Both the position numbers and the translations under genes were made by a program. A stretch of DNA of 43,179 nucleotides from a virus. This document shows, one piece after another, positions 22,992-40,890 of this stretch; position 1 is the first letter of the stretch; every line of letters begins with the position of its first letter. The notes under the pieces were generated by a model, which made no database searches, had not been told where the DNA came from, and saw only the letters and a program-made list of their open reading frames with translations. The stretch covers positions 1 through 43,179 of IMG/VR virus record IMGVR_UViG_3300033153_004901; one strand, 5' to 3'.

Positions 22992-23448
22992 CGGTGTTCG
23001 TCCCGTTACCCTCATGCTGATGGAACGCAGAGACAGTCCACCCACGCCCAGAAATCAACGCAGAACGCCCATCGTTACGGGTCTTGTTAGTGTCCTGCAA
23101 CGACCACGACGCCCAATACTCCTCAAGGGTGTACGGATCGGACAGCCCACCGATGTTCGTTTCGGCACGGTCGATCCAGTTGCCGATCACAGTCTCCACC
23201 TGGGGGCCGTTACGAATGTCGTCAGCGAACAAAGCATCGTCAACGTCTTGGTCGGTGTCGGTGTCGCCCACCGTAAGGTCGAACCCGTACTTGAGTTCAC
23301 GGAGATCAATGGTGGCCGTCAACCCTGCGGGGATGGAATGGGTGAAACGGGAAGTGACCCTCGTAGCGTGCTCATACACATTGACAATGAACGTCCATGT
23401 GGAGCCCACGAGGGTCGCTTTCGGGTATACGTGTAGCAGCCTTGCCAC
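22984..23448 (-). CDS. Hypothetical virion protein, 154 aa
   Basis: GTG start. The mixed beta sequence begins LLHVYPKATLVGSTWTFIV and ends with a Gly/Asn-rich tail; a central acidic stretch (DTDTDQDVDD) could bind Ca. It sits between the capsid-proximal protein and the giant fibre, so it may be a head-completion or tail-attachment protein. No family recognised. Confidence 0.68.
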   Translation of the reverse strand: MARLLHVYPKATLVGSTWTFIVNVYEHATRVTSRFTHSIPAGLTATIDLRELKYGFDLTVGDTDTDQDVDDALFADDIRNGPQVETVIGNWIDRAETNIGGLSDPYTLEEYWASWSLQDTNKTRNDGRSALISGRGWTVSAFHQHEGNGTNTDG

Positions 23449-24132: not shown

Positions 24133-25128
24133 TCAGGTGATGTTGTGGATACGTCCGTGGAAGGACTCGGGTCCGTACTGGAGACCAATCTCCCCGTACA
24201 GCTGGGCCTTGTCCGTCGCTCCATCCTTGGCTAGCGGCTCAATGAAGAACGCACCCTTGCCAGGGATCGGGAGGATGACGGGCTTCACGACCGACATGTC
24301 TGCGATGAGGATCTCATCGGCAACCATGTAACGGTCGAGAACGATCGACACCGTACCGAAGTCGGTGACCAGCGTGTCAACAGCCACACCACCGACAGTC
24401 CTATCGCGCGGAGCGAGGAGACCGGTGTTGGTGAAGTCGTTGGTCAGCTGAACCTTCACGGAACCGTTGCAGAACAGTACGAACGTACCGTCCTCGTTGG
24501 CTGCCGGCGCAACCTCGGCTTCGTACGTCGGATTGAACATGGCTACGAACAGAGCGTTGATCGAATCACGGAGATTCGAGTCGGACGAGGTTGTGTAGTC
24601 ACGTACATGGGTAGCGATTGCGCCCATGATTCCCTGCGTCTGCCTCGCTGTCGAGTTGTTCGCGGGGTTCACGAGCGAGCCATTGAGGAACGACTGTTCC
24701 ACATCTCGCTTGACCTTGCCGATTTTCTTGTCGATCTGATGCTGGAACGGGCTCTTGACGGGCTGATCACCGAGGATCAGTGTCGAAGCCGTACCAAGCT
24801 GTTCAATGACAGCCTGCGCCGTGTAGCCAAACTCAACTGCTTCCTGATGAATCTGAACCACGTTGGTCACTTGCTGGACGGGCACCGTGCTGGACGCCGG
24901 GACCGCATTTTCAAGGACCGTTGATCCTGATGCGGACACTTCGCCATCTTCGACGGTCCACGTGTACTCTCGGGACGCGATCGTGCGTCCACCGTTGAGT
25001 CCACCGGCCATTGAAAGGAACGGCGTGTTGTTCGGCATGAGATCCGTGAGCTCGCCAACATAGTTGGGGAGGTCATACGAATCTACAGCACCGGCGATGG
25101 GTGTTGATGGGATTGTATAGTCGGGCAT
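24133..25128 (-). CDS. Major capsid protein, SU10/DUF5309-like
   Basis: The 331-aa protein has the SU10-like layout: an N-terminal ELTDLMPNNTPFLS segment, SREYTWTVEDGEV, VTNVVQIHQEAVEFGYTAQA, a charged KIGKVKRDVEQSFLNG helix, TRQTQGIMGAI, and the C-terminal half with VLDRYMVADEILIADMS and a final EPLAKDGATDKAQLYGEIGL. This family has the HK97 fold and builds the icosahedral head. The scaffold candidate lies just upstream. The ribosome site is GGAAAG. Confidence 0.87.
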   Translation of the reverse strand: MPDYTIPSTPIAGAVDSYDLPNYVGELTDLMPNNTPFLSMAGGLNGGRTIASREYTWTVEDGEVSASGSTVLENAVPASSTVPVQQVTNVVQIHQEAVEFGYTAQAVIEQLGTASTLILGDQPVKSPFQHQIDKKIGKVKRDVEQSFLNGSLVNPANNSTARQTQGIMGAIATHVRDYTTSSDSNLRDSINALFVAMFNPTYEAEVAPAANEDGTFVLFCNGSVKVQLTNDFTNTGLLAPRDRTVGGVAVDTLVTDFGTVSIVLDRYMVADEILIADMSVVKPVILPIPGKGAFFIEPLAKDGATDKAQLYGEIGLQYGPESFHGRIHNIT

Positions 25129-25149: not shown

Positions 25150-25524
25150 CTATCGGCGTCGGAACATCTCCTCCACACGCTTCGCTTTGATAGCGCCTGC
25201 GGTGGCGTAGTCTCCCTCGGCTTCGGCCTTTGTAAGTGCCTCTTTCTCTGGCGTTTCTGGTGCCTCGTACCCGTACTCCTCTTTCGCAAACTTCGCGACC
25301 GCTTCGGCGTCCGGTTCCCCGGTGTACTCCTTGGCGATGGCCTTACCCAAACCTGTCTCTGGAGACAGTCCGAGAGTTTCGTATGCCGATGACATCAGTT
25401 GAACCCGGTAACCGTGGCTCGTGTCTTTCTCCCTTGCGAGAGCGTCACGTAATTCCTTCGGTGCCTCTGGTACCACTGGTGTCTCGTTTACTACTTCCTC
25501 GGTTGGTGTTGCTTCGGTGGTCAT
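25150..25524 (-). CDS. Scaffold protein candidate, 124 aa
   Basis: Small, highly acidic, Glu/Ala/Pro-rich and mostly helical (KELRDALAREKDTSHGYRVQ; EAVAKFAKEEYGYE), ending in a basic EEMFRRR tail. This composition, with a basic C-terminus, and its place directly before the capsid gene are typical of phage scaffolding proteins that are lost or cut during head maturation. No protease gene is next to it. Confidence 0.7.
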   Translation of the reverse strand: MTTEATPTEEVVNETPVVPEAPKELRDALAREKDTSHGYRVQLMSSAYETLGLSPETGLGKAIAKEYTGEPDAEAVAKFAKEEYGYEAPETPEKEALTKAEAEGDYATAGAIKAKRVEEMFRRR

Positions 25525-25671: not shown

Positions 25672-26484
25672 CTACTCTTGTGTCAAACCGGTCAGTCCGC
25701 CACGCTGCGAGCGGGCGGAGGGGCCAGCACCGAACGATGCGCGTTCCTGTCCGAGAAGCCTCCTCATGCGTCGCCTCTGGAACGGGTCGGAGAAGATCTC
25801 CGCCTGCTCGAACTCGTTGAGATCGAAGTCGTCATCGGGGTCGTCATGCCTAGCGGCCAGAATATCGAGGATGGGGAGTGCCGACCCTGCTTGCCCGTAC
25901 ACCTCGCGGGCTTGGTCGAGAGTGAGGCCTTGTGCCGCGATCTCTCCCTGCCTTGCCTGTGTCAGCGAGAAGCCCTGTTCGGCGGCTGCGCCACCTATCT
26001 CTGCCATAGATATCTCTTGCCCGATGATCCTGTCACCCAGTTCAGGGTCGAGGACGGACGCAAGGATCGCTTCGGTGGTCATGTCGATCTCGAAGTTGTC
26101 GGCATACACCTGCTTGATGGCGTCGGATTGGCTGATCACGCGGTCGTACACCTCGCCGGCTGCCCGCTCGAACTCATCGACTGACCGTTCACCTTGCATC
26201 GCTGCGGTGATCTTGTCGTCCCACAGACCGGTCGAGTTGTTGAGCCCCATCGAGGAGAGCACATCGTTGTAACCGGCACGGACACGCGAGTAGTCGCCTT
26301 CCCCATATCTGACCTCACCATTTTCGGTGGTGTTGCCAGGGAACCATGTCTCGTACAGCGGGTCGGAACGTACGTCGAGCCACGGTTTCACGGAGCCAGC
26401 CCTGTACGCCGTGTCGTATGCCTCTATCGCTGCGGCAGGGAGCCACGGATAGAGAAGGATGATCTGCTCTGTCGCGGTTGCCAT
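25672..26484 (-). CDS. Acidic virion protein, 270 aa
   Basis: Mainly helical, acidic, with many Gln/Glu and few Cys. It begins LLYPWLPAAAIEAYDTAYR, a segment type repeated in the next upstream gene, and the C-terminus is basic (RRRMRRLLGQ). Probably an internal head or ejection component, as the preceding genes are; role not known. It is followed by a 147-nt gap with regulatory hairpins. Confidence 0.65.
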   Translation of the reverse strand: MATATEQIILLYPWLPAAAIEAYDTAYRAGSVKPWLDVRSDPLYETWFPGNTTENGEVRYGEGDYSRVRAGYNDVLSSMGLNNSTGLWDDKITAAMQGERSVDEFERAAGEVYDRVISQSDAIKQVYADNFEIDMTTEAILASVLDPELGDRIIGQEISMAEIGGAAAEQGFSLTQARQGEIAAQGLTLDQAREVYGQAGSALPILDILAARHDDPDDDFDLNEFEQAEIFSDPFQRRRMRRLLGQERASFGAGPSARSQRGGLTGLTQE

Positions 26485-27857
26485 CAGACTGCCCCTCTCA
26501 CACCGGTACGCATCGTCTGTTCAATGTCGTTTGCCATTGTCGATACCACCCTCGCATAGCCACGGTCAGACCCTACCTCGCGTGCCGCGCTCTGTGCCGC
26601 TAGCGGGTCGTTCATCTGCACGATGTTCTGGAACGCTGGGTCTGTCTCGTCGATAGGGACGCCCCAAATGTTCTGTGTGTACGAACGCCACGGTGCAGCG
26701 ATTTGGGCGTAGGTCGCGTTCTCGTCCTCATAGTTGGGGAACAGCACCCTACGTTGCCCGCGTAGGTGCTCTACAAGTGCGTCGCGTCCACCGGCTGTGT
26801 CGTTGTGCATCGCGGACGCCCACTTACGGATCACATCCTCGTCGGGCGGGTAGGAGGGGCCGAGCCATTCTTTGTAGAGGTCACGTACGGCATCAAAGTT
26901 GGAGATACCTTCGTTCGTGCCGAGCCCTTCGTTCTCTATGAACTCGGCGAACTCTGAGTCGAGTTCGGCTGCGCCACCGAACCCTGCATAGGCTTGTATC
27001 TGGTCGAGTGCCTGATCCAGCGTCCAATCGCCACTGTTGTACTGATCGGCTACCCACGAGACAAGGTTCGAGTTCGGGTCGATACCGAACGACGCTATCT
27101 CGTCGAACAGGCGTGACGCATACGAGTCGTGACGGTCGGAGTATCCCTCTGGGTCGGACAGTTGGAGGCGCATAGCGTCGCGCTGCCCCTTCGAGTGCGA
27201 CTGGAAATACTCCGTCTGTTCAAGCTCCCACGACTCGAGTTCGCGGCCTTCAAGGTACGCACCCGCAACGATCGCGAACACTTCGGGATCCTCCGCAAGC
27301 CACGGCATCGACTCCATCGCACGTTCCATGCGTGACGTGAACCCTGCCCACGGATCTTCGATCAGTTCGTTCGCTGCGTTGTACCGGTCGATGGACGCCA
27401 TCTCGCCGAATATGACGGAACCGGCCGCTTCCATGTCCGCTTCCGAAAGGGTCTTGTCCGCCACAGGATCCTTGTCACCGAACAGAGACTTGAGCTCCTC
27501 CTCGGTGCTGATCGTGAACAGCAACGGGACGGGCGGCTGCGGGCCTGACTCGGGGTAGTACACGAGGTAGTACTCTTTGGTCTCCTCGTTCTGCCACACT
27601 TCGGGGAGTCCTGGTACCCCGTTGAATCGTGTCTGTTCCGCGTCGGTGTAGTCGGTGAGACCGTCATCTGTCGCTTCGGCGTCGGCGTCATTTGCAGGAG
27701 TAGTCGAGGAGCCACTACCGCCACCTCCGCCACCTCCGCCACCACCGGTTTCGTCTACTGGAGGGTGACGGAGCGCATAGTCGGGGGAACGGGGGTCTAT
27801 CCCTTCCGGTGGCGGGTCGTTGAATCCGGCGTCAAAGTCGGGGTCGCGTGTCACCAT
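26484..27857 (-). CDS. Acidic virion protein with Gly-rich linker, 457 aa
   Basis: The N-terminal ~60 residues include a run of ten Gly (about 39-48) coded by GGN triplets, then an acidic helical body. Long helical stretches include WLAEDPEVFAIVAGAYLEGR. A C-terminal region (RRVLFPNYEDENATYAQIAA, then WRSYTQNIWGVP) resembles segments in actinophage minor virion proteins. One-base overlaps join it to both neighbours. It probably works with the lysin and the giant protein in DNA ejection; inferred. Confidence 0.62.
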   Translation of the reverse strand: MVTRDPDFDAGFNDPPPEGIDPRSPDYALRHPPVDETGGGGGGGGGGSGSSTTPANDADAEATDDGLTDYTDAEQTRFNGVPGLPEVWQNEETKEYYLVYYPESGPQPPVPLLFTISTEEELKSLFGDKDPVADKTLSEADMEAAGSVIFGEMASIDRYNAANELIEDPWAGFTSRMERAMESMPWLAEDPEVFAIVAGAYLEGRELESWELEQTEYFQSHSKGQRDAMRLQLSDPEGYSDRHDSYASRLFDEIASFGIDPNSNLVSWVADQYNSGDWTLDQALDQIQAYAGFGGAAELDSEFAEFIENEGLGTNEGISNFDAVRDLYKEWLGPSYPPDEDVIRKWASAMHNDTAGGRDALVEHLRGQRRVLFPNYEDENATYAQIAAPWRSYTQNIWGVPIDETDPAFQNIVQMNDPLAAQSAAREVGSDRGYARVVSTMANDIEQTMRTGVRGAV

Positions 27858-28960
27858 CAGGCAGTCACCTCAGTCGTGGTCTTAGGGCCACCCGTTGTCG
27901 GAGTTTCCGCTGGCCCATCTTCACCGAGGAGGACATCGGGGTTCCGTTGCCCGCCTGCGATCTTGTTGGAGAGCTGGTCGAGCATCGAGTTCATCTGTGT
28001 CGAGGCACCCATCTCACCCTGCACGTTGTTGTACGCCTGTCCTGTCGGGTACACACCTTGCGGGTTGCCTGACCCTTCGAGGTAGGTGTACGGGTTGATC
28101 ACTTCACCGTTCGCCTTTTTCATCGAGAAGTGGAGGTGCGCGCTCGTGTTGCGGGCAGAGCCACTATTGCCCACAAACCCTATATGGGCACCGGCACGGA
28201 CTTGCTGCCCCGCACCGACTACGGCCGCTTCCGACATGTGCGCGAAGTAGTAGATGATGCCGTCGTCGCCCTGTATCCGTGCCGTGAAGCCACCGATGTT
28301 GGACTCTTTCGTGGAGATGATCTTCCCACTGACGGGTGCCACGATGGGTGTCCCGTGGGATGCGTAGATGTCTGTCGCTGCGTGTGTCCGTCCGCGATGT
28401 GTGAGGGTGTTCGGCATCCACGACCCTTGCGAGTATTCCGTTTCGCCAGCGACGGGCATCACCCAACCACCCTGCCCCTGCGCTTTCTTGGACACAGGAG
28501 CCGGGACACGTTGGGACACACCGAAGTCTGGGGCGTTCTGGGAGAACTCCTGATAGTTCGTCACGTACTTGCGGATCTCCTCATTCTGGATGGACTGTGG
28601 CCCTTCGTAGCCGCGTTGCATCACCTTGCGTGCGGATTCCGTGCCACCGATCCATGCCAACGCTGCTACGTCGTACGAACCGTATGCGTCCACATATTCG
28701 GCGGCACGGTGAGCCGCCACTCTGTCTTGTGCCCGTGGGTCACGGTGGTCGGCACCAGCGATACCGGCTCTCTGAGCCCACGCTTCCCAGTTGGAGTCGA
28801 GGATCCCGTATGCGCCTCGTGGCCGACGGCCTGATGTCCGTTGTCCCTGATATTGGTAGTTGCCTTCGTACGATCCGGACTCGAGGAGTCTGATGGTGGC
28901 AAGGAACGATTCCATTCCACCGGAACGGTCGAGGAGGCTTGACGTTGCTACTGGGCTCAT
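27857..28960 (-). CDS. Virion lysin: transglycosylase-like plus M23 peptidase
   Basis: Residues ~15-110 resemble a lysozyme/transglycosylase domain (LLESGSYEGNYQYQG with Glu 27 as candidate acid, then GRRPRGAYGIL, and AALAWIGG). Residues ~160-290 are an M23 peptidase: HRGRTHAATD (zinc His and Asp near 190) and TSAHLHFSM with H-x-H near 274; the central GTPIVAPVSGKI and ARIQGDDGIIYYFAHMSE are typical of the family. The C-terminus is low complexity. Its place between internal virion genes, away from the lysis cassette, suggests it opens the cell wall during DNA entry. ATGA overlap with the previous gene. Confidence 0.88.
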   Translation of the reverse strand: MSPVATSSLLDRSGGMESFLATIRLLESGSYEGNYQYQGQRTSGRRPRGAYGILDSNWEAWAQRAGIAGADHRDPRAQDRVAAHRAAEYVDAYGSYDVAALAWIGGTESARKVMQRGYEGPQSIQNEEIRKYVTNYQEFSQNAPDFGVSQRVPAPVSKKAQGQGGWVMPVAGETEYSQGSWMPNTLTHRGRTHAATDIYASHGTPIVAPVSGKIISTKESNIGGFTARIQGDDGIIYYFAHMSEAAVVGAGQQVRAGAHIGFVGNSGSARNTSAHLHFSMKKANGEVINPYTYLEGSGNPQGVYPTGQAYNNVQGEMGASTQMNSMLDQLSNKIAGGQRNPDVLLGEDGPAETPTTGGPKTTTEVTA

Positions 28961-30984
28961 GCTCTACTCAGTTTATCGAAGGAACCAAACAGGTTCCGTG
29001 ACTTGGATTGCACATCGTTCCATCGGCTCTTGGCGTCTATCTCGTCGGAGAACTGTTCGTCGAACGTGTCTGCCATCCGTGTCGCGGGGTTGATCTCCGA
29101 GAAGGTACCAGGGTATGCCGTTTCGCCTGTCTCTGCGGAACGGCCTTCCGCCTCGAAGGTCGCTTTGTCTCCGGCCTGTTCTGCGTCGTAGGCGGCACGA
29201 TGGTCAGACTTGAACTCGTCAGCCAACAGATCCATCTCCCAGTCGTTCGCTTTGCGACCCAGCTTCCGAGAGAACTCTGACTTCACCCGCTCACTGATCT
29301 CGGTGTAGTCCGGTGCGAAGTATGCGCGGGAGGGTGTCCATGTCGGCGGGGCGTTCGGGTCACCGAACCTCTCGAAGTACGCTTCTCTGCCTTCGATCAT
29401 GGTGTTCATCGCGTCGTCGTATGTGTTCTTGTCGCCCGAAATGTTGGCGTTCAGCATCGCCGCTGAAAGAGCACGAATCGTATGTGCGTCGAGAACTCCC
29501 GGTGTGAAGAACACACCGTCCATACGGGTCTTTTCGTCGATGAGCCCTGCTTCGATCGCCTTGTTTTGGAAGTTGATCACTTGTAGGGCAGACCATGACG
29601 AGATTTCGTCGGACACATCGTTCGCCCTGTAGACGGGGCCACCACGTTCTTTCCCGAGGCGGTCCGCTTCGCCTGCCCCACCGTATATGTCAGGTTCGTT
29701 ACGCCCGCTACCGCGACCGTGCGGGTTGACGTTGACATCGTTCGCGTCGGTGACCCTGTAGTACGAGTTGCCTTCGTCGATATCGGGGAATCCGATAAAC
29801 GGGTTCTTCTGATAGGCCTCTGTCCGCTGCTTTTCGGCAGCCGCGACCCGCTCCTCCCTAAATGCTTTGTCTGCCCGTGCTTGGTTTTCAGGGTCGAACA
29901 GCTCTTGTGAACCTGTGGCACGGTACTGATCTGCGGCACCGTACACCTGATTAGAGAACTGTCCGTCGATCTGTCCCTCTGGCGGATTATCTGGGTCAAT
30001 GAGCTCAGGAACTTCGGAGTCTGCGAATGGTGAGGGAAGGTCGGTATTGGTGGGGTCGATGAGTCGGGCGGCCTCGTCGGGAGAGATAGCCACACCGTCG
30101 GCGTCTGTGATGGTGAGGGTCTCAGCGTCAAGGGCACCGATGTATTCTTCACCTGCGGCTACCGGTTCGCCACCAACAGATACGGTGTAACCGGCCCTCT
30201 CAAGGTCGGCAACCCGTATCTGTCTGCCTTGTAAAGCTTCGATGGCTGCGATTGCTTCGGCGTCACCCGTCGAATAGACGAGGGCGTCGATCGCAAACGT
30301 GGATGCTGCGCCTTCTATAGAGAGGCGAGAAAGCCACCTTGCCAACGATACGCCGCCACGACGGAAATGGTTGAGCGTGTTCGACATGCCTTGGGAGTGA
30401 ACGATGTAGTTGAAGGCTTGTCCTGCCCGTGTCGTCGCCATCGCACCGGTCGCACCCGATACGGCGAGTGTGATGGAGGAGGTGGACACACCCGAGGCTG
30501 CCCACCTTGCTGCTGCGGCACCCCCCGACCAAAGGGTCGGAGCGACTGCGACACCATACACGACGAACGGGACAGCGAGGATGGCGTCGGCCCATGATAG
30601 AGCGTTGTTGTGTACCGAGTGGCCTGTACGCAAGGCGTGCCCTATTGCTTGGTTGGAACGCTTCCCCTCCGGACCGTCCGACCACCTCAACAAAGCGTCG
30701 TACGCCGCTTCGGGTGTCGAGGCGTCAGCGAAATCGAAATCGAAGTCACGGTTGATGGCGTCTTGATCAAGGAACGCGATCGCTTCCTTGTCGTTCCATG
30801 CAAGGCCGAGGATAAAGAAGTCCTCCCGTGTCATCGCGTCCGCAAACCCTTGGGCACGGATGATCACAGCACCAAGCGTCAACGCACGGTCCTGTATGGG
30901 GATGCTCATCCAATCGTCAAACGAATGGACAACACCGTCCGGTGTCTCCCTCTTGCTTCCGCCTTCGGTGAATATCTCGACCAT
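28957..30984 (-). CDS. Predicted internal virion/ejection protein, 675 aa
   Basis: A hydrophobic and Ala/Gly-rich region at ~134-215 (WADAILAVPFVVYGVAVAPT; SSITLAVSGATGAMATTRAG) looks able to enter a membrane, as in pore-forming ejection proteins of short-tailed phages. The rest is acidic and helical. It lies between the giant protein and the virion lysin, which supports an ejection complex. No family recognised; the membrane role is inferred from hydrophobicity. Confidence 0.65.
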   Translation of the reverse strand: MVEIFTEGGSKRETPDGVVHSFDDWMSIPIQDRALTLGAVIIRAQGFADAMTREDFFILGLAWNDKEAIAFLDQDAINRDFDFDFADASTPEAAYDALLRWSDGPEGKRSNQAIGHALRTGHSVHNNALSWADAILAVPFVVYGVAVAPTLWSGGAAAARWAASGVSTSSITLAVSGATGAMATTRAGQAFNYIVHSQGMSNTLNHFRRGGVSLARWLSRLSIEGAASTFAIDALVYSTGDAEAIAAIEALQGRQIRVADLERAGYTVSVGGEPVAAGEEYIGALDAETLTITDADGVAISPDEAARLIDPTNTDLPSPFADSEVPELIDPDNPPEGQIDGQFSNQVYGAADQYRATGSQELFDPENQARADKAFREERVAAAEKQRTEAYQKNPFIGFPDIDEGNSYYRVTDANDVNVNPHGRGSGRNEPDIYGGAGEADRLGKERGGPVYRANDVSDEISSWSALQVINFQNKAIEAGLIDEKTRMDGVFFTPGVLDAHTIRALSAAMLNANISGDKNTYDDAMNTMIEGREAYFERFGDPNAPPTWTPSRAYFAPDYTEISERVKSEFSRKLGRKANDWEMDLLADEFKSDHRAAYDAEQAGDKATFEAEGRSAETGETAYPGTFSEINPATRMADTFDEQFSDEIDAKSRWNDVQSKSRNLFGSFDKLSRA

Positions 30985-30986
30985 AG

Positions 30987-33900
30987 TTATCTCCCGTTCA
31001 CGGTGTCAGCGTAGCCCAACAAATCTTCACTAGGCGTTGTTGGCGCAATTATCACTGGGTTATCCCAGTCGAATCCTTCAAGGAGTGGAGACAACATGAA
31101 CTGCCCAACGTAGTGTGCCCTGTTCTGGCCTTCGTCCGACATGCCCGCCACATAGCCGTTGAGGGCGTTCACGAACCCTTCCCGCAACTGGGGTGCCCTG
31201 TTCTCTGTCGAGGTGGATGTTTGCCACCACTCATGTCCGAACCCTTGGGAAAGGGCGTACTGTTCCATGACTTGCCACTGTGCTGTGGCGAACTCGACGA
31301 ATCCGACAAGTTCAGGATTCGACTTGCGCGCAACAGCGTTCGCGTGCGAGGACGGGTCACCGATGAGAGACAACTCGTTCCACACGAGCCGGTACGACGG
31401 ACGGTTCGTGACCCCAGGGAGCCCCTCGCCGGGATCATACGCGAAGTACTGGGTCGCGATGTTCGCCTTCTCACGGTTGTACCACGGTTTGATCACTTGG
31501 TCACGCATGATGCGGTAGCCTGCCGTGTCTGTCCCGCCGTACCGCTCCTCGAGGTCTTGGTAGATGGCGTCGCGTTGCTCGACAAGGGAACCTAACCGGT
31601 GTGCCCCTGCTGCATACGAGTAGTAGTTGACGACGTTCTCGGTCGTCATCTGTTCACGGCCAGAGGCACGCCAAGCGTCGATGTCGAACTCGCCGTCGTC
31701 GTCTGGGAGCCATGCCATCATCGTGAACGACGCGACTTCCTCAAGTTCCTTGTTGTCTCGGAGGGCTTCCCACGCTGGCCCTGTGACCGGTCGTGCTGCG
31801 CCTGACCATGTTGCGGGCGCAAGCCTCAAGGGGTCAAAGCCGTACATCTTGCGGAAAATGTCGATTGCTGCGTCGGCACCGTACGTGTCGCGGAGTACCC
31901 GATAGTCCGCTGCAAGGGCAACGATCGACTTCACATGCGGATCGCCGTCCTCGTTGTAGAGCACCATCTGTTCGACGTTGCGTGGCTGAGCGGGAGTGAT
32001 GAACGATGCAAAGATGTCTACGGATGCCATCCACGAGGCTTGGTCTTGTGCGAGGCGCGCGATCTCTTGCCCAAGTTCCTTGTCAATGGCAGGGTTCCCT
32101 TCTGCTAGGGCCGCGTACCCGTTCATAATCCTCACGGTCATCGCACCGTACCGGTCGTCGAACTCGCCGTTGAAGATACGAGATATCGACCGGCGTATCC
32201 ATGTCGGCATGAATGTCGTCGCGACCGCAGTCAGGTCGGAAACATCGGAGGGGCCAAAGTCACCGAAGAAGAACGTATCGTATGCGTCCTTCCCTTCCTG
32301 TGGGAGCCACCCTTTGTCGAACATCACGTTCCGTACGGCGCTGGCAAAGAGCTGTACTTGTGGCGAGAACCCCGGCTTGAAGGCTTGTTCGGGGGAGCCG
32401 AAGTCAACGAACGTGAGTTGGTCAACACTGATCTGTGGCGAGAACGAAACGGGTGAATCCTTGATCACGTTGAACAGCGAGCCGGCCCCAGGGATCTCGA
32501 ACACCCTTTCGCCTTCTTGGTTAGTGGTGAAGTACCCGGACGATTCCCCCGCGATGGCGAGTTGCCCGCCGCGACGTGCGACCTTGAACGGTGCGGCACC
32601 GGACTGGGCGGGGTTCATCAGCTTCGTCCAGCGTGACAGAACTTCCCACCATGCGTCCGCGAACGGAAACACGAGGCGTGTCCCATCTTGCCATGCGCCA
32701 CCTTTCGTCAGGTCGTAGAACAGTTCCTTCGTGTCGTCCACGGCCTCCATCCAAGACATCTCCACGATCTCGTCAAGCGTCATGTCTGCCGCGGCACCGA
32801 CCCTGGGTGCCTTCATGCCACGTATCTCGAGGGCGTCATCAACGAAACCTACGAACCGGTCACCGATCCCTGCATCAAACGCTGCGTCCATCAGTTTCTT
32901 ACGCATAGCGGGTGACGCTGAGACATAGTGGCCGGCCGTGAGCTCCCAGTTACGGAGTGTCACGAATGGGCGGCGTGTCACATTCAGTGAAGGGTTGCGG
33001 CCCAACACGCGGAATATGGCGTCAATCATCGACTTCTCATCGTTGGCGTTCAGGTACGGGCGGTCTGGTACTGACACACGATCCACGGCGGGATACTCGG
33101 GTGAGAACGAATCGGTGAGGTACGCCTCTAGGTCATTGAAATCGGTTTTCAACATGTCGTCTTTGATGAGGTCGGTCTCCCCCTGCTGCACGATCTTGTT
33201 GGCATCACCATCAAGTTCGGTCTTAGATAGTCGCCCGTCTACGCGTCGTTTTGCCATCGGTTTGCGACCGGGGAGCCTGATCTTGCGGCCGGAACCGTTG
33301 CCGTCCACGAACACGGACGGCGGGATCGACTCTTTCTGGATCACATATACTGCTTCGCCCTTCTTCATCTTCGATGCGGCCGTGTCAAGGTCGCGGTACG
33401 CAAACGACGCCGAACCGGGATCGAACTTCTTGGCGGGCCCGACAACGAATATGTAGTCGGAACGGGTGACGGAGGTGCCGTCCTGTGCGTGGAACCAGTT
33501 ACGTGCCGCCGACACGCGGGCACGGTTGATGTTCGGTGCTTGCTGCGTCTTGCCGTGACGTATCAAATCGAGGCCGTCAGGGTTGCCACGTTTCGTGACG
33601 ATGTACGACTCTGATCGTGACAAGAGATCCGGGGGGTTCCCGTCACGTTGTAGTAGTTGAGAGCGGAGCTCGTCGAGCGAACCTTTGGGGCGGGCCCCGA
33701 TCGCGTCGGGTGCGAGGAGGTCATGGAGTTCCTGTCTCGTCCACGCTGTTCCGTCTGCCTTTGTGTGATACGTTTCGACGAGTTCGCCGTACATGTCTAC
33801 CCATTGGCCGTTCCCGTCGCGCCCGACCCACCGGCCACCCGTGTACTGGTGCCTTTGGGCGTCGAGTGCTTCGAGGACACGCCTAAGTTGTGCCTCGTCA

Positions 33901-36900
33901 CCGGACAAACCGCCAAGGTTCGGGGCGTCCTTATCGACACGGGCTGCAATCCTTGCAAGTACCCCATTGTCGTCCACGTTGTCTGAGAGGTACCGCAACG
34001 CATCTTCGATGGTGCTGTGGTCAGCGAGAACGTCTGCCATCTCGGACTGGTATAGGTGCAGGTATCGGCGTGCGACACCACGGGCACCCCTGCTCGTAAG
34101 CGTCTGAGTGTTCCCTATCCGTGCCGGCTGCTGCGTCCATGACGCCGACCGTGCCGACGTTTCAAGGTATGGGAGGTCGTCTGCGCCACGCAACAGGCCG
34201 TTATCGGCACCGAGTCCTGCTACATCGGTGAGGGCACGGAGGCTGTCGCCGTTCGCAAGCACATCACCCTTCGTTTTCATCGCGTAGCCAAGGGACGCGA
34301 CAGGGTTCGTTGCAAGGTCGGAGTACCCGTATGCCCACATGCGGGCTATCTCGTCGGGGAGGACACGGAGGATCCATCCGATGCGTGCCAGGGCGAAGTT
34401 GCGCCAGAGGGACAGGGCTCTATCGACTCCGGCTTGTGGGGCAGATGTCCCTATGCCTGTCCACGAACGACCGCGTGCTGCCCGCGACTTTTCTGTGAAC
34501 CAGCGCACCCCTGCCGATACGCGTCTAGCGTCACGGGTGGATGGCATGAATAGGGTTCGGTGACCCAACTGTGAATCTGCGAGCGGTTCGGAGCCGATAA
34601 GGTCGAGGGGCTCATCGAACCGTTCCGACTTGATGCGACGCCCCGGTGTCGCCCGCAGCGCCAAGGGCTGCCCCGCGGCGTTCTCGGCGTACTGGTGGTT
34701 CTTGAGTGTCGCCTCCTTCCACTCGCGGATCACCGTATCGACGTATTCCTCTGTGTGGCCCTTACGCACGAGGTCTTTCTTCATCCACTCGAACAGGCGA
34801 TCTTGTAGCTCAAGGGCACGGACGCGTGGGGTCATGTTCAGTTTGGTGCGGGGGTCGATCCTGATGTCGCCCATATCCATGAGTCTGAGCGCAGAGTCCG
34901 CTTCGTCCGCATTACGACCGAATAGCCCCGCCCAAGACATCACTGTGGGGTAGGTGACATCCATATTGTATGGGTCGATTGTCTGGTGCCCCATCTCAGA
35001 TTTGAGTCTGCGCCCCCATGCGGACAGTGTTTCGTACCGGGGCCACACGTTTGCCACGCTTCGGCCGTTAGCGGACGGGGTGCCGTGCTGGAACGCCGAC
35101 AGCCCTGACGACGTACGGCTACGCTTCGGCACGTTATATCGTGACTGGGGTGACCCGTACCATTCTTCAAGGATGTTCTCTATCACCCTCCTGTCGGTCG
35201 TTTTGTCCAACTTGTAAAGGTTTTCTTCGGACATACCAGGGAGTTTCCGTCTGATCCTCGAGTAGCCGTTCTCAGCGATGTAGTCGATCATGCGGCCACC
35301 CTTGCTTCCGGTTAGGCCTCCCTTGCCGGTCTTGAGCCAGTTCTCGAATGTGGCGGGGTGAATGTTCCATTGACCGCGTACGTTGACAGCTCCTGCTTCT
35401 GCGATGTCGTCAAGGAACATCGCGTACCCTTCGAACCCCTTGCGGGTCCCGAACACGTAACCCCAGTCGGACATCTGTTGTGCCTCTGACGGTGTGAACG
35501 ATGCCATAGGGGTAATGGGGAGGTCGTCGGCTGCGGAGAACACGAACTCGTCTGCCCCTTTGAGGAGAGACATGCGGGCAACGATCGCTGCTTGTTCTTC
35601 TGTCAGGTCTGCCCCTGCCCGAAAGATCGACTCGTCCTGTACCTTGCGGGCGGCAAGGTGGGCGTCGAACGCTTCAAGTACCTCATCCGAGTTGTCCCAT
35701 CCCTCAATGATCCTGCGTACGTCTGATACCGACCCGAGGGTGTCACCCTCAATGACCATCGCACCTTCGGCGGAAGGACCGGCTGCACCATCGAAAAGGC
35801 GATCTACTTCGTCGGCAAGGTCACCGGAACCTTGCTTACCACCCAATGCGTCGTACAGCATGTCGGTGTCAATGACACGGTTCGCTTCGTCCCACTCGAT
35901 GCGGGACAGCAGCAACTCATCGGGGGTCATGTTCGGGAACGCTTCGGCTGCGGCACGCTCCGAGAAGATCTGTTCGACCCTTTTCCCTTTCAGGTATGCC
36001 GCCTGCACGTTCGGGGGGAGGTCGTCAATGTTGAATGTGTGGAGCGACCCGTCTTTGCCTGTGAGCCCGAACGACTCGTCGAAGCTGGAACCTATGCCGC
36101 CACGGTTCAATACCCCACCCTCGAGTTCCGTTACGTCTGTGCCGTGGAGACCGAACGGTGTGGATTCGTCGATCTTCGCACCCCCGAACTGTGCGCGCGC
36201 GATGTTGTCGTGGTGTTGTGCTGTCGTCTGGAACCGTTCGGACGCTACTGCTGTACGGCGTGCCCTGTTCGCCTGTCCGACGATCCTGAACGCAGGATTG
36301 AATGGGTCGCCACCGGTTTGCAGGAATAGGTCTGTGCTGCCAGTGACGAACTTGTACGGCGCACTATCGGGGTCGATGTGCTGAAAGAATGGCTGCCAGA
36401 TGGCACGGCCGACAGTGGCATGGTACGAGTTGACGGTGCCATCCTCCATTGTGGAGTGCAGCATCGTGGACTCGGCCAACTTTCGGGAATGGTCGAACAT
36501 CGTTTCTGTGCCAAGGGCGGTCTGCCATTCGCGGGTGTACCCGAGCGCCTCGTCCGGTTCGTAGCCCTGATCCAGATATCCTTGCAACACAGCAGAACCA
36601 CCGGGACGCAACGCAGGGTCAGGGTTCGATCCTGGCAATAGACCGGACGACCCGAATACTTCTGCGTTCGACGGGATATGCCCTTGGTTCAACTCGCTGG
36701 CTACCCCACCGACGAGTGAACGGCCGGCCCGTTGGTGTGCCTCGATCGGATTGAAGTTGGACGACGGGAGGTTCAGTGCAGTCCTTGTCCACCGCGGTAT
36801 GCCAGAGTCGAAAACGTCCCACGCTAAGCCAAGGGTTGTGCGTGACACGCCACCGAGATACTTGCCGAAGAATCCTTCCTCTTTCGAGTCGTGTTCGAGT

Positions 36901-37115
36901 ACCTCTGAGATGTGTGGCTGATCTACCGCCCATCCCGTAACAGACAGGGCAGCGAACATGTCTGGTGACGCCGACGGGTACTGCCGTGCAGCGTTCGAGA
37001 TCTGTTCACCCGCTCCGGGTGCGACACGGTTCTGGACGCCATACCACTCGGCAAGTGTCGCTTCATAGGCGGCTTGCTTCTCGTTCTGTTCAATCGGATC
37101 GTCGAACTCACCCAT
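30987..37115 (-). CDS. Giant internal virion protein, 2042 aa
   Basis: This is the largest gene of the window. It starts at ATG 37115, overlapping the Gly-rich gene by 8 nt. The sequence is mixed helical and beta with no Walker, RNA polymerase or protease motif that I can see. Recognisable features include a hydrophobic/aromatic stretch near ~910 (LARIGWILRVLPDEIARMWA), a second near ~1485 (FPFADAWWEVLSRWTKLMNP), and a central domain with TSVTRSDYIFVVGPAKKF. Placed after portal-proximal genes and before the lysin, it fits a large packaged ejection or polyvalent protein. Function unknown. Confidence 0.72.
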   Translation of the reverse strand: MGEFDDPIEQNEKQAAYEATLAEWYGVQNRVAPGAGEQISNAARQYPSASPDMFAALSVTGWAVDQPHISEVLEHDSKEEGFFGKYLGGVSRTTLGLAWDVFDSGIPRWTRTALNLPSSNFNPIEAHQRAGRSLVGGVASELNQGHIPSNAEVFGSSGLLPGSNPDPALRPGGSAVLQGYLDQGYEPDEALGYTREWQTALGTETMFDHSRKLAESTMLHSTMEDGTVNSYHATVGRAIWQPFFQHIDPDSAPYKFVTGSTDLFLQTGGDPFNPAFRIVGQANRARRTAVASERFQTTAQHHDNIARAQFGGAKIDESTPFGLHGTDVTELEGGVLNRGGIGSSFDESFGLTGKDGSLHTFNIDDLPPNVQAAYLKGKRVEQIFSERAAAEAFPNMTPDELLLSRIEWDEANRVIDTDMLYDALGGKQGSGDLADEVDRLFDGAAGPSAEGAMVIEGDTLGSVSDVRRIIEGWDNSDEVLEAFDAHLAARKVQDESIFRAGADLTEEQAAIVARMSLLKGADEFVFSAADDLPITPMASFTPSEAQQMSDWGYVFGTRKGFEGYAMFLDDIAEAGAVNVRGQWNIHPATFENWLKTGKGGLTGSKGGRMIDYIAENGYSRIRRKLPGMSEENLYKLDKTTDRRVIENILEEWYGSPQSRYNVPKRSRTSSGLSAFQHGTPSANGRSVANVWPRYETLSAWGRRLKSEMGHQTIDPYNMDVTYPTVMSWAGLFGRNADEADSALRLMDMGDIRIDPRTKLNMTPRVRALELQDRLFEWMKKDLVRKGHTEEYVDTVIREWKEATLKNHQYAENAAGQPLALRATPGRRIKSERFDEPLDLIGSEPLADSQLGHRTLFMPSTRDARRVSAGVRWFTEKSRAARGRSWTGIGTSAPQAGVDRALSLWRNFALARIGWILRVLPDEIARMWAYGYSDLATNPVASLGYAMKTKGDVLANGDSLRALTDVAGLGADNGLLRGADDLPYLETSARSASWTQQPARIGNTQTLTSRGARGVARRYLHLYQSEMADVLADHSTIEDALRYLSDNVDDNGVLARIAARVDKDAPNLGGLSGDEAQLRRVLEALDAQRHQYTGGRWVGRDGNGQWVDMYGELVETYHTKADGTAWTRQELHDLLAPDAIGARPKGSLDELRSQLLQRDGNPPDLLSRSESYIVTKRGNPDGLDLIRHGKTQQAPNINRARVSAARNWFHAQDGTSVTRSDYIFVVGPAKKFDPGSASFAYRDLDTAASKMKKGEAVYVIQKESIPPSVFVDGNGSGRKIRLPGRKPMAKRRVDGRLSKTELDGDANKIVQQGETDLIKDDMLKTDFNDLEAYLTDSFSPEYPAVDRVSVPDRPYLNANDEKSMIDAIFRVLGRNPSLNVTRRPFVTLRNWELTAGHYVSASPAMRKKLMDAAFDAGIGDRFVGFVDDALEIRGMKAPRVGAAADMTLDEIVEMSWMEAVDDTKELFYDLTKGGAWQDGTRLVFPFADAWWEVLSRWTKLMNPAQSGAAPFKVARRGGQLAIAGESSGYFTTNQEGERVFEIPGAGSLFNVIKDSPVSFSPQISVDQLTFVDFGSPEQAFKPGFSPQVQLFASAVRNVMFDKGWLPQEGKDAYDTFFFGDFGPSDVSDLTAVATTFMPTWIRRSISRIFNGEFDDRYGAMTVRIMNGYAALAEGNPAIDKELGQEIARLAQDQASWMASVDIFASFITPAQPRNVEQMVLYNEDGDPHVKSIVALAADYRVLRDTYGADAAIDIFRKMYGFDPLRLAPATWSGAARPVTGPAWEALRDNKELEEVASFTMMAWLPDDDGEFDIDAWRASGREQMTTENVVNYYSYAAGAHRLGSLVEQRDAIYQDLEERYGGTDTAGYRIMRDQVIKPWYNREKANIATQYFAYDPGEGLPGVTNRPSYRLVWNELSLIGDPSSHANAVARKSNPELVGFVEFATAQWQVMEQYALSQGFGHEWWQTSTSTENRAPQLREGFVNALNGYVAGMSDEGQNRAHYVGQFMLSPLLEGFDWDNPVIIAPTTPSEDLLGYADTVNGR

Positions 37116-37509
37116 TGAGGAGCCGTCCGAGGTACGGCGTAGGGAACTGGGCGTACAAAGCCCGTAGTGTCATTTCGACGTTCGCTTGTCCACCGGCTTG
37201 AGGGTCGGGGAGGGCACCTGTTGTGATCGGTTCGTTGGGTCGTTGGGTCGGGCCGAACGGATCAAGAGCCGCTGGATCCCCAGCTGCGCCAGCCGCGCCT
37301 CCACCGCCACCCGTTCCTCCCGTGACAACCGGTGCGCCCGACGCTTGACCTTCAATCGCTTGCCGGTCGCCGTAACTACCTCCAGCCGCGGCAAGGTCAG
37401 CCGTACCCAGCCTCCGGTCGGCAGGGCCACCGTCAGTTCTTTGGGAATGTGCACCCGGACCTGACTGAGCAGCCGGATTAGCCGGGGCACGTGGGCCTCC
37501 ACTTGGCAT
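37108..37509 (-). CDS. Gly/Pro/Ala-rich hypothetical protein, 133 aa
   Basis: It starts at ATG 37509, nine bases after the duplicated-domain gene, and overlaps the giant gene by 8 nt, which fits the operon. It is low complexity with a Gly run at the centre (VTGGTGGGGGAAGAAG) and a short structured C-terminus (MTLRALYAQFPTPYLGRL). A competing ORF in another frame (37170-37547) is judged to be a shadow. Probably a linker-like virion component. Confidence 0.6.
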   Translation of the reverse strand: MPSGGPRAPANPAAQSGPGAHSQRTDGGPADRRLGTADLAAAGGSYGDRQAIEGQASGAPVVTGGTGGGGGAAGAAGDPAALDPFGPTQRPNEPITTGALPDPQAGGQANVEMTLRALYAQFPTPYLGRLLNG

Positions 37510-37518: not shown

Positions 37519-38871
37519 CTATCTTCGGTCGAAGTGTGTCGAGACACCCTTGACGGTCACGGTCGCTTCGACACCTGGCGTCGATTGGGTGACGGTCGCT
37601 GTCGAGCCTCCGGTGAGGGAGCCGCTTTGGATCGTCATCAGCGCCACGTTCCCGTCCGCTGACGGCCACGTTACGTCCCAGTCGCCGGCAGCGTTACGGA
37701 CTACGGATACGCCGTCGATGTTCGACAACAGTTCCAACTCTGTTTCGACACCGTTCACACCGAGGGTCGTTGTCCCAAGCGTGGTGGCGTCGAAGATGTT
37801 GGTTACTGCCGTGAAGGTCTCGGTCGTTGCCAGGGCGTTGCCTGCCGTGCCGACTGTCCGTGCTGTCAGGATCGCATCGTTCGAGATGAAGTCTGCACAC
37901 GATACGGTCACGTTGGCATCAAGCTTCGCTACGATGTTGACCTTCGCTGCTGCAAGATCGGCACCGACAAAGATCTCGTCTGTTTCGGTGGACGCCGCCG
38001 CAACGAACGTATAGGCGACACCATCGACGGTCACCGTGTCAGCTGCGGCACCAGCAGTCGTGGTACCGAGCGTCGTGGCGTCAAAGACGTTGGTCACACC
38101 GTTAAAGGTTTCGGTGGTCGCTATCGAGTTGCCACCCGTCCCACCCGTTACGGCGGTCAGGATCGCGGCATTGGTAGCGAACGCTGCGATACGGACAGTT
38201 GCGTGCTGCAAGGTGAGAGCTGCATACTTGGTGCCGTACCCTGCTTCACGGTTGATCGCTGCCACAAGGTTCTCTTGTGCCGTGGCGAGTGTGAGCCCGA
38301 TCGCCACGTTGCCGTCAACATTGGTGAGGGTGTCCTCAAACGTGTAGACGCGCGCATCGACTGTGAGGGTGTCGCCGTTAATGGGCTTGATGTCCATTGT
38401 CAGTTCGCCTTGCGCTGCGATGACCGCCAACGGCTGCGTGTCTACCGTCAAGGTGCCCTCGGCTGCGATCGAGTCGTTGGGGGCGTCCCAGTCGAGTGCC
38501 GCTGTCGGGCCTTGGCCGTCGAACGTCAGTGTGAACGTGCCGCCCGTATGGTTGTGCTCGACCGCTTGAATCTCGGATACGTCGCCGGTCAGTGTCCATG
38601 TCACCTTGTAGTACGCGGCTTTGACCGTAAACTCTTTCATCACGACGGAGACTGCGGTAACAGCCGGCATCGTGTCTGGTGTCGCGGCTGGCCCGAAGTT
38701 CACACCATCTGGTGACCATTCGACCTTGATGGCGACCGAAGCCGCTGTGCCTGCTACTGCCGTGAAATCGAACGCGAGCGCGATCTTGTCGCTGGTCGCC
38801 TTGATCGCACCGGTGGATCCGGTGACGGTTGTTACGCCGTCTACGATCGTGAAGTTGCGGTTGCCTGTCAT
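37519..38871 (-). CDS. Structural protein with two ~110-residue repeats, 450 aa
   Basis: Residues ~165-275 and ~277-370 are copies of one domain (DTLTVDARVYTF ... NVAIGLTLATAQENLVAAI ... GGTGGNSIATTETF, then TVTVDGVAYTF ... ADLAAAKVNIVAKL ... GTAGNALATTETF). This beta/alpha repeat is common in phage virion proteins such as head decoration or fibre shafts. The N-terminal ~100 residues look Ig-like, with WSPDGVNFGP and AAYYKVTWTLTG. It follows a Zn ribbon protein and portal, so a head-decoration role is the best guess. Confidence 0.72.
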   Translation of the reverse strand: MTGNRNFTIVDGVTTVTGSTGAIKATSDKIALAFDFTAVAGTAASVAIKVEWSPDGVNFGPAATPDTMPAVTAVSVVMKEFTVKAAYYKVTWTLTGDVSEIQAVEHNHTGGTFTLTFDGQGPTAALDWDAPNDSIAAEGTLTVDTQPLAVIAAQGELTMDIKPINGDTLTVDARVYTFEDTLTNVDGNVAIGLTLATAQENLVAAINREAGYGTKYAALTLQHATVRIAAFATNAAILTAVTGGTGGNSIATTETFNGVTNVFDATTLGTTTAGAAADTVTVDGVAYTFVAAASTETDEIFVGADLAAAKVNIVAKLDANVTVSCADFISNDAILTARTVGTAGNALATTETFTAVTNIFDATTLGTTTLGVNGVETELELLSNIDGVSVVRNAAGDWDVTWPSADGNVALMTIQSGSLTGGSTATVTQSTPGVEATVTVKGVSTHFDRR

Positions 38872-39102: not shown

Positions 39103-40890
39103 CTATCGTGTCGCGACGGTTTGGGCACCGCCAGTTGCTCCCTCGAGTTGAGAGAGTACAGATTGTACGGGTGGCCTTGCACCGGTACCGTCGGGTGGAG
39201 CGCCTTGCGCGAGCGCATCCGCTGGGTTCGGTGCCCCACCTTGGGCGAGGAGTTCCTCTTGGTTCAAGCCGAGAGCGGTCTCGAGTTCGTCCTCGACGTT
39301 CTTCGGGTTCTTGTAGACACCGTACAACGCTGCGAGCGCGGCAGGGTCTTGTCCCTGGGCTCGCACGTCGAGTGCACCCATCAGTGACCGGAACGCACCG
39401 TCTTGGATGATCCGTTCGTTCACGAGACCGATGTTGTCGAGGCCGTCGAGGTTCTCTTGGACTGTGCGCCTGTCGAGGATCCCTGCGCCTTGTAGTTGGA
39501 GGCCGGCGAGGATCTTCTGTGTCTCGTCGAATGTCGCCATCGCGCCGAACACACGGCGGGTGCGGTAGTCGCCGTCGATGTCTTTGCCTGCAACGTACTT
39601 CTCCTCGAACGAGTTTCCGCCTTCGTACCAGTACACCCGCTTCTCTTTGGTGGGGTGCATCGCATCTTCCCATTCGAGCCGCTTGCGGTCGATGAGTTCA
39701 GCGGAGTGCTTGATAGCGGTCTGGTATTCCTTGACGTTCTGGTTGCGTGATTCGCCGAGCTGCTCGATCCCTGCACCGGTCGCGAACGAGTTGGGTGACT
39801 GTCCATCTTGTGCAACGTCGTAGCCGCCGACGATCCGGAACTGGCGTTCCACGATGTTGACGCCTTGCCACAGTTGATTGAGTTGCGCCTCTGTCGGCTT
39901 CTCGACACGGGTGCCCTGTTGGAAGAAGTTGATGGCGTCGCGGCCCTTGAGGTACTCCACGGAATCCATCTCGCCGTACACGTTCGTTTCACGGAACACG
40001 GTGTCCTCTGTGCCCATGAGTCCCAAGATGTTGAGTCGAGCCATCATCGCCATAAGACCGAATACGTGCTCGTATTGTGACCCGAGTCGGTCGAAGCTGA
40101 ACCGTTTGGTCATCACGAACGCTGGTCCGGATGATAGCGGGTTCGGTACGAACGTGAGGATTTCCTCAGTGTCGAGAGACACGAGGTAGGTGCCGGACGA
40201 GTCGATGTACTCTGCGACCTCGAGCTGGGTGTTCGTCCCTTCCCAGTTCGATTGGCCGAGGATGTAGATTCCTGTCCGGCGCGACCTGTCGATGACCTTC
40301 ATGCCGGGGTACTGCCGGCGTAGCCACTTTTCCTCGACGCGCCTGATCGACACGACTTCGGTTGGCTGCTGGTTCGGACCCCAGAATCCGGGGTATACGT
40401 CGTACGGGTCGCGGAGTTCCGCTACCGGATAGGTGTGTCCGCCTTCGGTCTGTTCCTTGATGACATGGAGGACGAATCCGTAGCCTGGGAGCCACCGGCC
40501 GATCTGGGGGTACTGCATCTCTGCCCGCCCGAGGTCGTCCCACCCTTGAACGATGCGGCCACGCTTCTCCGCTTTGTCGCGGGCGGCCTTGTTGTCCTTG
40601 ATGGGGAGCATGTCGGTCTTGAGGGTCGGTGCCCGCCCGATCATCTGTGACAGTTTCTCAAGGCCGGACCACATGAGGTTCGCCGTGGGGAGGTCTACGC
40701 CCAAATCTTGGAGGTCTTTCGCTGGCCCGTTCGCGTCCCATCCGAGGATCGCTTGGACACCCTCTTGGCCGCCGTTCATAACGGAACGTATCCGTCGCCG
40801 GCTCATCAAGTCCTGCTGGTTCCGTAACGCATCTATACGTTCACGCAACTCTGGGTAGCCAAGTGTCATGGGTATGTCTATTGCGAGCAC
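39103..40890 (-). CDS. Portal protein
   Basis: The portal is the dodecameric ring at the head vertex through which DNA enters and leaves. The 595-aa size, the place directly after TerL, and the sequence support the call: a helical N-terminus, the beta wing (HTYPVAELRDPYDVYPGFWG; VSIRRVEEKWLRRQYPGMK), the stem/crown helices (MARLNILGLMGTEDTVF; SRNQNVKEYQTAIKHSAELI) and an Ala/Gly/Gln-rich C-terminus. GTG 40890 has a GGAAGG ribosome site; an ATG at 40869 has none. Family within portals not assigned. Confidence 0.8.
   Translation of the reverse strand: MLAIDIPMTLGYPELRERIDALRNQQDLMSRRRIRSVMNGGQEGVQAILGWDANGPAKDLQDLGVDLPTANLMWSGLEKLSQMIGRAPTLKTDMLPIKDNKAARDKAEKRGRIVQGWDDLGRAEMQYPQIGRWLPGYGFVLHVIKEQTEGGHTYPVAELRDPYDVYPGFWGPNQQPTEVVSIRRVEEKWLRRQYPGMKVIDRSRRTGIYILGQSNWEGTNTQLEVAEYIDSSGTYLVSLDTEEILTFVPNPLSSGPAFVMTKRFSFDRLGSQYEHVFGLMAMMARLNILGLMGTEDTVFRETNVYGEMDSVEYLKGRDAINFFQQGTRVEKPTEAQLNQLWQGVNIVERQFRIVGGYDVAQDGQSPNSFATGAGIEQLGESRNQNVKEYQTAIKHSAELIDRKRLEWEDAMHPTKEKRVYWYEGGNSFEEKYVAGKDIDGDYRTRRVFGAMATFDETQKILAGLQLQGAGILDRRTVQENLDGLDNIGLVNERIIQDGAFRSLMGALDVRAQGQDPAALAALYGVYKNPKNVEDELETALGLNQEELLAQGGAPNPADALAQGAPPDGTGARPPVQSVLSQLEGATGGAQTVATR

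What the first reader, a model, noticed from the sequence alone, without database searches (positions are those of the whole stretch)
30987..37115. 2042-aa giant protein of unknown fold near the portal
It takes ~14% of the window and lies after portal-proximal genes and before a virion lysin, a position where polyvalent or ejected proteins are found. I see no polymerase, protease or nuclease signature. Phages keep such genes only if they matter, for instance to take over the host on entry or to form a trans-envelope channel.
Basis: inference. Interest (0 to 1): 0.72.

Follow-up and report, generated by a model that had tools for sequence, protein, structure and literature searches.

The report
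Giant cysteine-free phage ejection-type protein
This 2042-residue viral protein belongs to a widespread but unnamed family of huge, almost cysteine-free proteins encoded beside the DNA-entry portal of short-tailed bacterial viruses, and it is most likely stored in the virus head and pushed into the cell to help the viral DNA get in.

Summary
The ORF is real: 30987-37115, minus strand, 2042 aa, 82% identical to an intact gene in a related contig. No Pfam, PHROG, NCBIfam or PDB sequence match. It is not an orphan. More than 60 uncultivated viral contigs carry a homologous giant (1475-3524 aa) in the same slot: TerL, portal, small genes, giant, four further genes, major capsid protein. The cultured homologue is gp9 of the Streptomyces podoviruses (Beephvirinae; Abafar has a very short tail by published TEM), supported by profile comparison, tblastn of an intermediate, and Foldseek. 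Three conserved blocks (N, middle, C) alternate with two slots of very different length. The giants are nearly cysteine-free (5 Cys in 125,002 aa; portals 0.29%, terminases 1.47%), as are the four genes after them, one a peptidoglycan hydrolase. Ejected proteins of T7, N4 and P22 show the same absence, explained in print for N4-type virion RNA polymerase by passage through tail and periplasm. Best explanation: an ejected internal virion protein of a five-gene DNA-ejection cassette; not a tape measure, not a recognisable polymerase. Whether the slots carry effector domains is open: only one relative has a weak ADP-ribosyltransferase match. Presence in virions was not tested.

The parts
30987..37115 (-). 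giant gene, 2042 aa, proposed ejected internal virion protein; 0 cysteines
36216..37115 (-). conserved N block (aa 1-300)
   Evidence: occupancy mostly 0.7-0.97 over 62 giants
34959..36215 (-). variable slot 1 (aa 301-719; 107-1691 aa in relatives)
   Evidence: least conserved part between window and L117, 69% identity
33876..34958 (-). conserved middle block (aa 720-1080), best-kept stretch aa 901-930
32961..33875 (-). variable slot 2 (aa 1081-1385; 100-955 aa in relatives); in the window/L117 pair the most conserved part (91%, dN/dS 0.07)
30990..32960 (-). conserved C block (aa 1386-2042), mostly helical model; FPFADAWWEVLSRW (1483-1496), PGFSPQ (1581-1586)
37108..37509 (-). 133-aa ORF overlapping the giant's start, conserved before the giant
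   Evidence: 30 homologues by phmmer
37519..38871 (-). 450-aa ORF, close relatives only in the nearest contigs (577 aa there)
39103..40890 (-). portal protein
   Evidence: tblastn to annotated Streptomyces phage portals
40894..43074 (-). terminase large subunit
   Evidence: phrog_38 E 2.3e-45
28957..30984 (-). p675, cassette gene +1, 0 Cys, one predicted hydrophobic segment aa 134-152
27857..28960 (-). p367, cassette gene +2, peptidase M23, 0 Cys
   Evidence: PF01551 E 2.1e-20
26484..27857 (-). p457, cassette gene +3, 0 Cys
   Evidence: 29 homologues
25672..26484 (-). p270, cassette gene +4, 0 Cys
   Evidence: 31 homologues; phrog_8424 unknown function
25150..25524 (-). 124-aa ORF before the capsid gene (scaffold position, inferred)
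   Evidence: position
24133..25128 (-). SU10-type major capsid protein
   Evidence: PF17236 E 7.3e-62

Best explanation
The giant is an internal virion protein of a short-tailed phage that is packed in the head near the portal and ejected through the tail ahead of or with the DNA. With the four following gene products, one of which cuts peptidoglycan, it forms the apparatus that carries the genome across the cell envelope. Shown: real gene, conserved place, conserved three-block architecture, homology to gp9 of Streptomyces podoviruses, near-total absence of cysteine in it and in the four genes after it. Inferred: presence in the virion, ejection, role as channel or channel anchor (its length and mostly helical C-terminal model fit), and delivery of the variable slots into the cell.
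For: Relatives are podoviruses: TerL and portal match Beephvirinae; the giant matches Beephvirinae gp9 by profile-profile comparison (probability 95%, E 2e-8, 509 columns), by tblastn of intermediate L102 to Immanuel3 gp9 (E 3e-10) and by Foldseek of the C-terminal model to the Streptomyces phage Manuel protein (E 3.7e-7, probability 1.00). Abafar, of that subfamily, has a very short tail by TEM (PMC11536984). Same place in more than 60 contigs. Cysteine: 5 in 125,002 aa of 65 giants, portals 0.286%, terminases 1.466%; after clustering at 40% identity 4 in 60,538 aa of 30 giants, portals 0.289% (Fisher p 4e-27, treating residues as independent). Controls: T7 gp15 0/747, gp16 0/1318, gp14 1/196; N4 gp50 0/3500, gp51 0/644, gp52 0/150; P22 gp7, gp20, gp16 all 0; but T7 RNA polymerase 12/883, N4 gp65 11/1382, P22 gp9 8/667. 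Genes +1 to +4 have 0.036, 0.015, 0.027 and 0.011% Cys, gene +5 0.575%. In the Beephvirinae cassette the NlpC/P60 protein keeps exactly one Cys, within the NlpC/P60 domain where the catalytic Cys is expected, and the next is an SLT transglycosylase. Cysteine-free N4-type vRNAP is explained in print by passage through tail and periplasm (PMC3715699, PMC3915230).
Against: No virion proteomics for this phage or any relative was found. No sequence similarity to T7, P22 or N4 ejection proteins (single sequences, weak test). The giant has no strong transmembrane segment by hydropathy; only p675 has one. Some other virion proteins of this phage also lack cysteine (portal 0/595, p641 0/641), so the signature is strong over the family but not specific for one protein. 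Lambda's tape measure is also cysteine-free (0/853). Ejection proteins were described as absent from the Gram-positive phi29 group (PMC8954989), while Streptomyces is Gram-positive.
Confidence: 0.75

Rival explanations
1. A delivery chassis: the conserved blocks are an ejection protein, and the two slots carry exchangeable effector domains that act on the host after entry (a polyvalent protein in the sense of Iyer et al. 2017).
For: Slot 1 ranges from 107 to 1691 aa and slot 2 from 100 to 955 aa between conserved blocks; slots are as cysteine-poor as the rest (2 Cys in 14,838 slot residues), so they seem to travel along. L099 slot 2 matches ART-PolyVal (PF18760 E 7e-4, 20.8 bits, below the curated cut-off of 31.2; 1.5e-6 in a search of its record alone). 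In the window slot 2 is the most constrained part (dN/dS 0.07) and its first half is shared with L119 (29%, E 6e-14).
Against: 18 slot or extension regions scanned against Pfam gave only that one plausible enzymatic match, itself below cut-off. The window's slots match nothing. No slot-1 domain was seen in slot 2 of another giant.
Confidence: 0.3
2. A tape-measure protein of a long-tailed phage.
For: Large, mostly helical in the C-terminal model, virion-type cysteine pattern as in lambda H; next genes include a peptidoglycan hydrolase.
Against: Cultured homologues are podoviral (PMC11536984); it lies between portal and capsid genes; no tail tube, tail terminator or tape-measure family among the window's scanned late genes.
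Confidence: 0.04
3. A virion-packaged polymerase, protease or other enzyme that is the main function of the protein (N4 vRNAP-like).
For: Size, cysteine absence and head location class as in N4 gp50; SU10/N4-type capsid.
Against: No polymerase or other enzyme family in the conserved blocks of 21 giants at E up to 0.01; no PDB match.
Confidence: 0.06
4. A fixed structural or assembly protein (head-tail joining, scaffold or minor capsid protein) that is not ejected.
For: Position between portal and capsid genes; portals and capsid proteins are also cysteine-poor.
Against: Portals of the same contigs hold about 70 times more cysteine; length variation up to 3524 aa and coupling to a peptidoglycan hydrolase gene are unusual for a fixed part.
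Confidence: 0.15

Closest known systems
gp9 of Streptomyces podoviruses (Beephvirinae: FlowerPower, Immanuel3, Manuel, Abafar), annotated as hypothetical protein
   Same: Same gene place (after TerL, portal and small genes), homologous middle and C-terminal parts, 0 Cys, followed by a four-gene set with peptidoglycan hydrolases
   Different: About 1640 aa, shorter slots; cassette has NlpC/P60 and SLT enzymes where the window has peptidase M23; about 20% identity
T7 ejection proteins gp14, gp15, gp16
   Same: Near-absence of Cys, large size variation, cassette with peptidoglycan hydrolase activity, podovirus
   Different: No detectable sequence similarity (weak test); T7 genes lie after the tail genes, not between portal and capsid
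N4 gp50 (virion RNA polymerase), gp51, gp52
   Same: Giant, 0 Cys, ejected with the DNA together with smaller partners
   Different: No RNA polymerase match in the window's family; no sequence similarity
P22 gp7, gp16, gp20
   Same: 0 Cys, ejected, form a conduit (PMC8402733)
   Different: Much smaller (229-609 aa), no sequence similarity
crAss001 cargo proteins gp45-gp50
   Same: Very large, helical cargo stored in head and tail and extruded (PMC10172136)
   Different: Described there as RNA polymerase-associated for the three giants; not compared by sequence here
Polyvalent phage proteins (PMC5512222)
   Same: Large multi-segment proteins likely packaged in the capsid; one relative (L099) has an ART-PolyVal-like segment
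   Different: The window's protein has none of the defining domains that were tested

Membership tests
Homologue of Beephvirinae gp9 | sequence homology over the conserved blocks | tested here: met
   hhalign probability 95%, E 2e-8, 509 columns over aa 1357-1958; L102 intermediate E 3e-10; Foldseek E 3.7e-7
Homologue of Beephvirinae gp9 | same gene neighbourhood | tested here: met
   TerL, portal, small genes, giant, about 4 genes with hydrolase, MCP
Podovirus ejection (internal virion) proteins | carried by a short-tailed phage | tested here: inconclusive
   no long-tail genes detected in the window; cultured relative Abafar is podoviral by published TEM; the window's own particle is unknown
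Podovirus ejection (internal virion) proteins | present inside the virion | not testable with these tools
   needs mass spectrometry or cryo-EM
Podovirus ejection (internal virion) proteins | ejected into the cell or envelope with DNA | not testable with these tools
   only indirect: Cys absence as in T7, N4, P22 ejected proteins
Podovirus ejection (internal virion) proteins | encoded in a small operon of several such proteins with a peptidoglycan-cutting activity | tested here: met
   genes +1 to +4 conserved and nearly Cys-free; p367 M23 E 2.1e-20
T7/P22/N4 ejection protein families | sequence homology | tested here: inconclusive
   hhalign against single sequences found nothing above the controls; weak test
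Tape-measure proteins | long tail with tube, terminator and chaperone genes | tested here: inconclusive
   none detected by PHROGs in the scanned late genes; relatives short-tailed
Polyvalent proteins | ART-PolyVal domain | tested here: not met
   no match in the window at E up to 1; weak match only in L099
Polyvalent proteins | LPD38 domain | tested here: inconclusive
   no match, but the control genomes rang nowhere either
N4-like virion RNA polymerase | single-subunit RNA polymerase domain | tested here: inconclusive
   no Pfam or PHROG polymerase match in 21 giants; divergent domains can be missed

The most novel reading that the evidence does not exclude
The family is a general injection chassis: conserved blocks that assemble and eject, with two built-in slots into which different phages insert different effector domains, all kept free of cysteine so that the whole chain can be threaded into the cell. 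The window's slot 2 (aa 1160-1310, strongest purifying selection) would then be a new kind of injected effector domain with no relatives in any library searched.
Probability: 0.25. Interest if true: 0.75.

Novelty: new variant of a known kind. Interest (0 to 1): 0.52.

Why it matters
It names a function class for the largest gene of a widespread group of uncultivated short-tailed viruses (at least 587 portal-relative contigs in one capped scan) and of the Streptomyces podoviruses, where it is still 'hypothetical protein'. It gives a test system in culture (Beephvirinae gp9-gp13) for how DNA is ejected across a Gram-positive mycelial envelope, where ejection proteins are little studied. The cysteine count is a cheap marker that could point out ejected proteins in other uncultivated phages. 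If the slots carry effectors, the family would show injected host-takeover domains riding on the ejection machine.

Tried and rejected
Direct homology searches with the whole protein: no match in cultured phages or by peptide patterns in IMG/VR; the family was reached through TerL, portal, MCP and intermediates. Pfam Thiol_cytolysin E 0.038-0.32 and phrog_30299 tail fibre E 0.035: chance-level, not followed. An ART-like reading of the HGT motif at aa 324-326: no Pfam support and no ART-like model there (slot 1 pLDDT mostly under 50). LPD38 (PF18857): no match, control uninformative. Foldseek against PDB: no match at E 1e-3; VIA-align best Z 6.3 at rmsd 11.4, tied rows of unrelated helical proteins, not meaningful. 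First N-terminal fold job (aa 1-1100) failed; the repeat (aa 1-960) gave mean pLDDT 52 and was not searched. First profile-profile comparison with only two and three sequences gave probability 6.6%; it rose to 95% with more diverse rows. Bacterial genomes: no relative among 59 pattern matches. Comparison of p641 with FlowerPower gp45: not significant.

Full report
Observation. The frame is real and lies on the minus strand at 30987-37115. It is part of a minus-strand late operon: TerL 40894-43074 (phrog_38), portal 39103-40890, p450, p133, giant, p675, p367 (peptidase M23), p457, p270, p124, and an SU10-type major capsid protein 24133-25128. The record is a 43,179-base uncultivated virus from IMG/VR. 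An orthologue of 2057 aa, 82% identical, exists in contig G001; dN/dS between the two is about 0.16.

Not an orphan. The whole protein finds nothing in cultured phages. Starting from TerL and the capsid protein, and then from an alignment of the first giants and portals, the family opened up: 65 proteins with a significant match to the C-terminal profile, nearly all directly after the portal and one to three small genes. Portal relatives alone exceeded 587 contigs in one capped scan. Complete giants run from about 1475 to 3524 aa.

Link to cultured phages. Beephvirinae (Streptomyces podoviruses) have the same order: TerL, endolysin, portal, small genes, an about 1640-aa 'hypothetical protein' gp9, gp10, gp11 peptidase, gp12 glycosylase, gp13, tRNA genes, a further gene, MCP. 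Homology of gp9 and the window's giant rests on three results: hhalign probability 95%, E 2e-8 over 509 columns; tblastn of the family member L102 to Immanuel3 gp9, E 3e-10; and Foldseek of the C-terminal model to the Streptomyces phage Manuel protein, E 3.7e-7, probability 1.00. Abafar, in the same subfamily, has an icosahedral head and very short tail by published electron microscopy (PMC11536984). No relative was found in bacterial genomes by pattern scan.

Architecture. In an alignment of 62 giants three blocks are kept: window aa 1-300, 720-1080 (best 901-930) and 1386-2042. Between them lie slot 1 (420 aa in the window, 107-1691 in relatives) and slot 2 (305 aa; 100-955 in relatives); some members also have insertions in the middle block or a longer C-terminal part. 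The C-terminal model (mean pLDDT 63; much of aa 1390-1460 and 1660-2010 at 70-90) is mostly helical with no clear PDB match. The N-terminal model is too poor to use. So the fold of the N-terminal and slot parts is unknown rather than shown to be new.

Cysteine. The window's giant has no cysteine in 2042 residues. Over 65 giants there are 5 in 125,002 residues (0.004%), against 0.286% in 108 portals and 1.466% in 99 terminases of the same contigs. After clustering at 40% identity, 30 giants hold 4 in 60,538, and portals 0.289%. Slots are as poor as the blocks. Genes +1 to +4 have 0.036, 0.015, 0.027 and 0.011%, gene +5 0.575%. Controls fetched for this purpose: T7 gp15 and gp16, N4 gp50, gp51 and gp52, P22 gp7, gp20 and gp16, and the lambda tape measure have none, T7 gp14 has one; T7 RNA polymerase, N4 gp65, P22 gp9 and lambda J have 8 to 12. 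In the Beephvirinae cassette the NlpC/P60 protein has exactly one cysteine, Cys33 inside its NlpC/P60 domain; that this is the catalytic residue follows from knowledge of the family, not from a test here. Absence of cysteine in N4-type virion polymerases is explained in the literature by passage through the tail or an oxidising periplasm (PMC3715699; PMC3915230). Limits: related sequences are not independent; some other virion proteins of this phage lack cysteine too (portal 0/595, p641 0/641).

Mechanism proposed. The protein is packed in the head at the portal, leaves through the short tail, and with the products of genes +1 to +4, one of which cuts peptidoglycan, forms or anchors the path for DNA. 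Shown: gene, neighbourhood, family, block architecture, cysteine pattern, hydrolase. Inferred: virion location, ejection, channel role. Confidence 0.75 for 'ejected internal virion protein'; the exact part it plays (channel, anchor, motor or carrier) is not decided.

Slots as cargo. L099 slot 2 has an ART-PolyVal-like stretch (E 7e-4 in Pfam, below cut-off; E 1.5e-6 in its own record). Otherwise 18 slot or extension regions gave no plausible enzyme. In the window, slot 2 is the most constrained part of the protein relative to L117 (91% identity, dN/dS 0.07; aa 1160-1310, 0.05) while slot 1 is the least conserved (69%); slot 2 shares its first half with L119 only and matches nothing else. This fits a functional domain but does not say which.

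Comparison and novelty. It works like an ejection protein; membership in the T7, P22 or N4 families was not shown (weak test). It is a member of the Beephvirinae gp9 family, which has no published function that was found in the library searched. The novelty is a large, unnamed family of the ejection-protein kind with a block-and-slot architecture: a new variant of a known kind.

Noticed in passing
17880-23045 (-): A 1721-aa protein largely built of short repeats (14 copies of DETG; motif like VATVTQ 28 times between aa 580 and 1670), in the tail-gene region; possibly a fibre.
   Followed up: partly
37519-38871 (-): The 450-aa ORF aligns twice to its 577-aa relative in L007 (aa 1-372 and 152-443), suggesting gain or loss of an internal repeated unit; no self-match within the window copy.
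   Followed up: partly
L093:16387-19428 (-): TerL of the close relative G001 is split over two frames (matches to aa 1-399 and 426-726), a frameshift in the contig or a real interruption.
   Followed up: no
575-628 (+): Exact 27-base in-frame tandem duplication (GMVEVMVEE) inside the zincin/ArdC-like gene 314-1315.
   Followed up: no
L126 group middle block and L178/L160 C-terminal part: About 200 aa shared (28%, E 1.7e-6) between an insertion in the middle block of one group of giants and the C-terminal extension of another, a hint of movable segments or of alignment error.
   Followed up: no
L114 slot 1: YunG-family match (PF24585 E 0.001, below cut-off).
   Followed up: no
10743-11546 (-): Likely endolysin (weak phrog_17001 match) placed at the far end of the late operon, whereas Beephvirinae have it between TerL and portal.
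   Followed up: no
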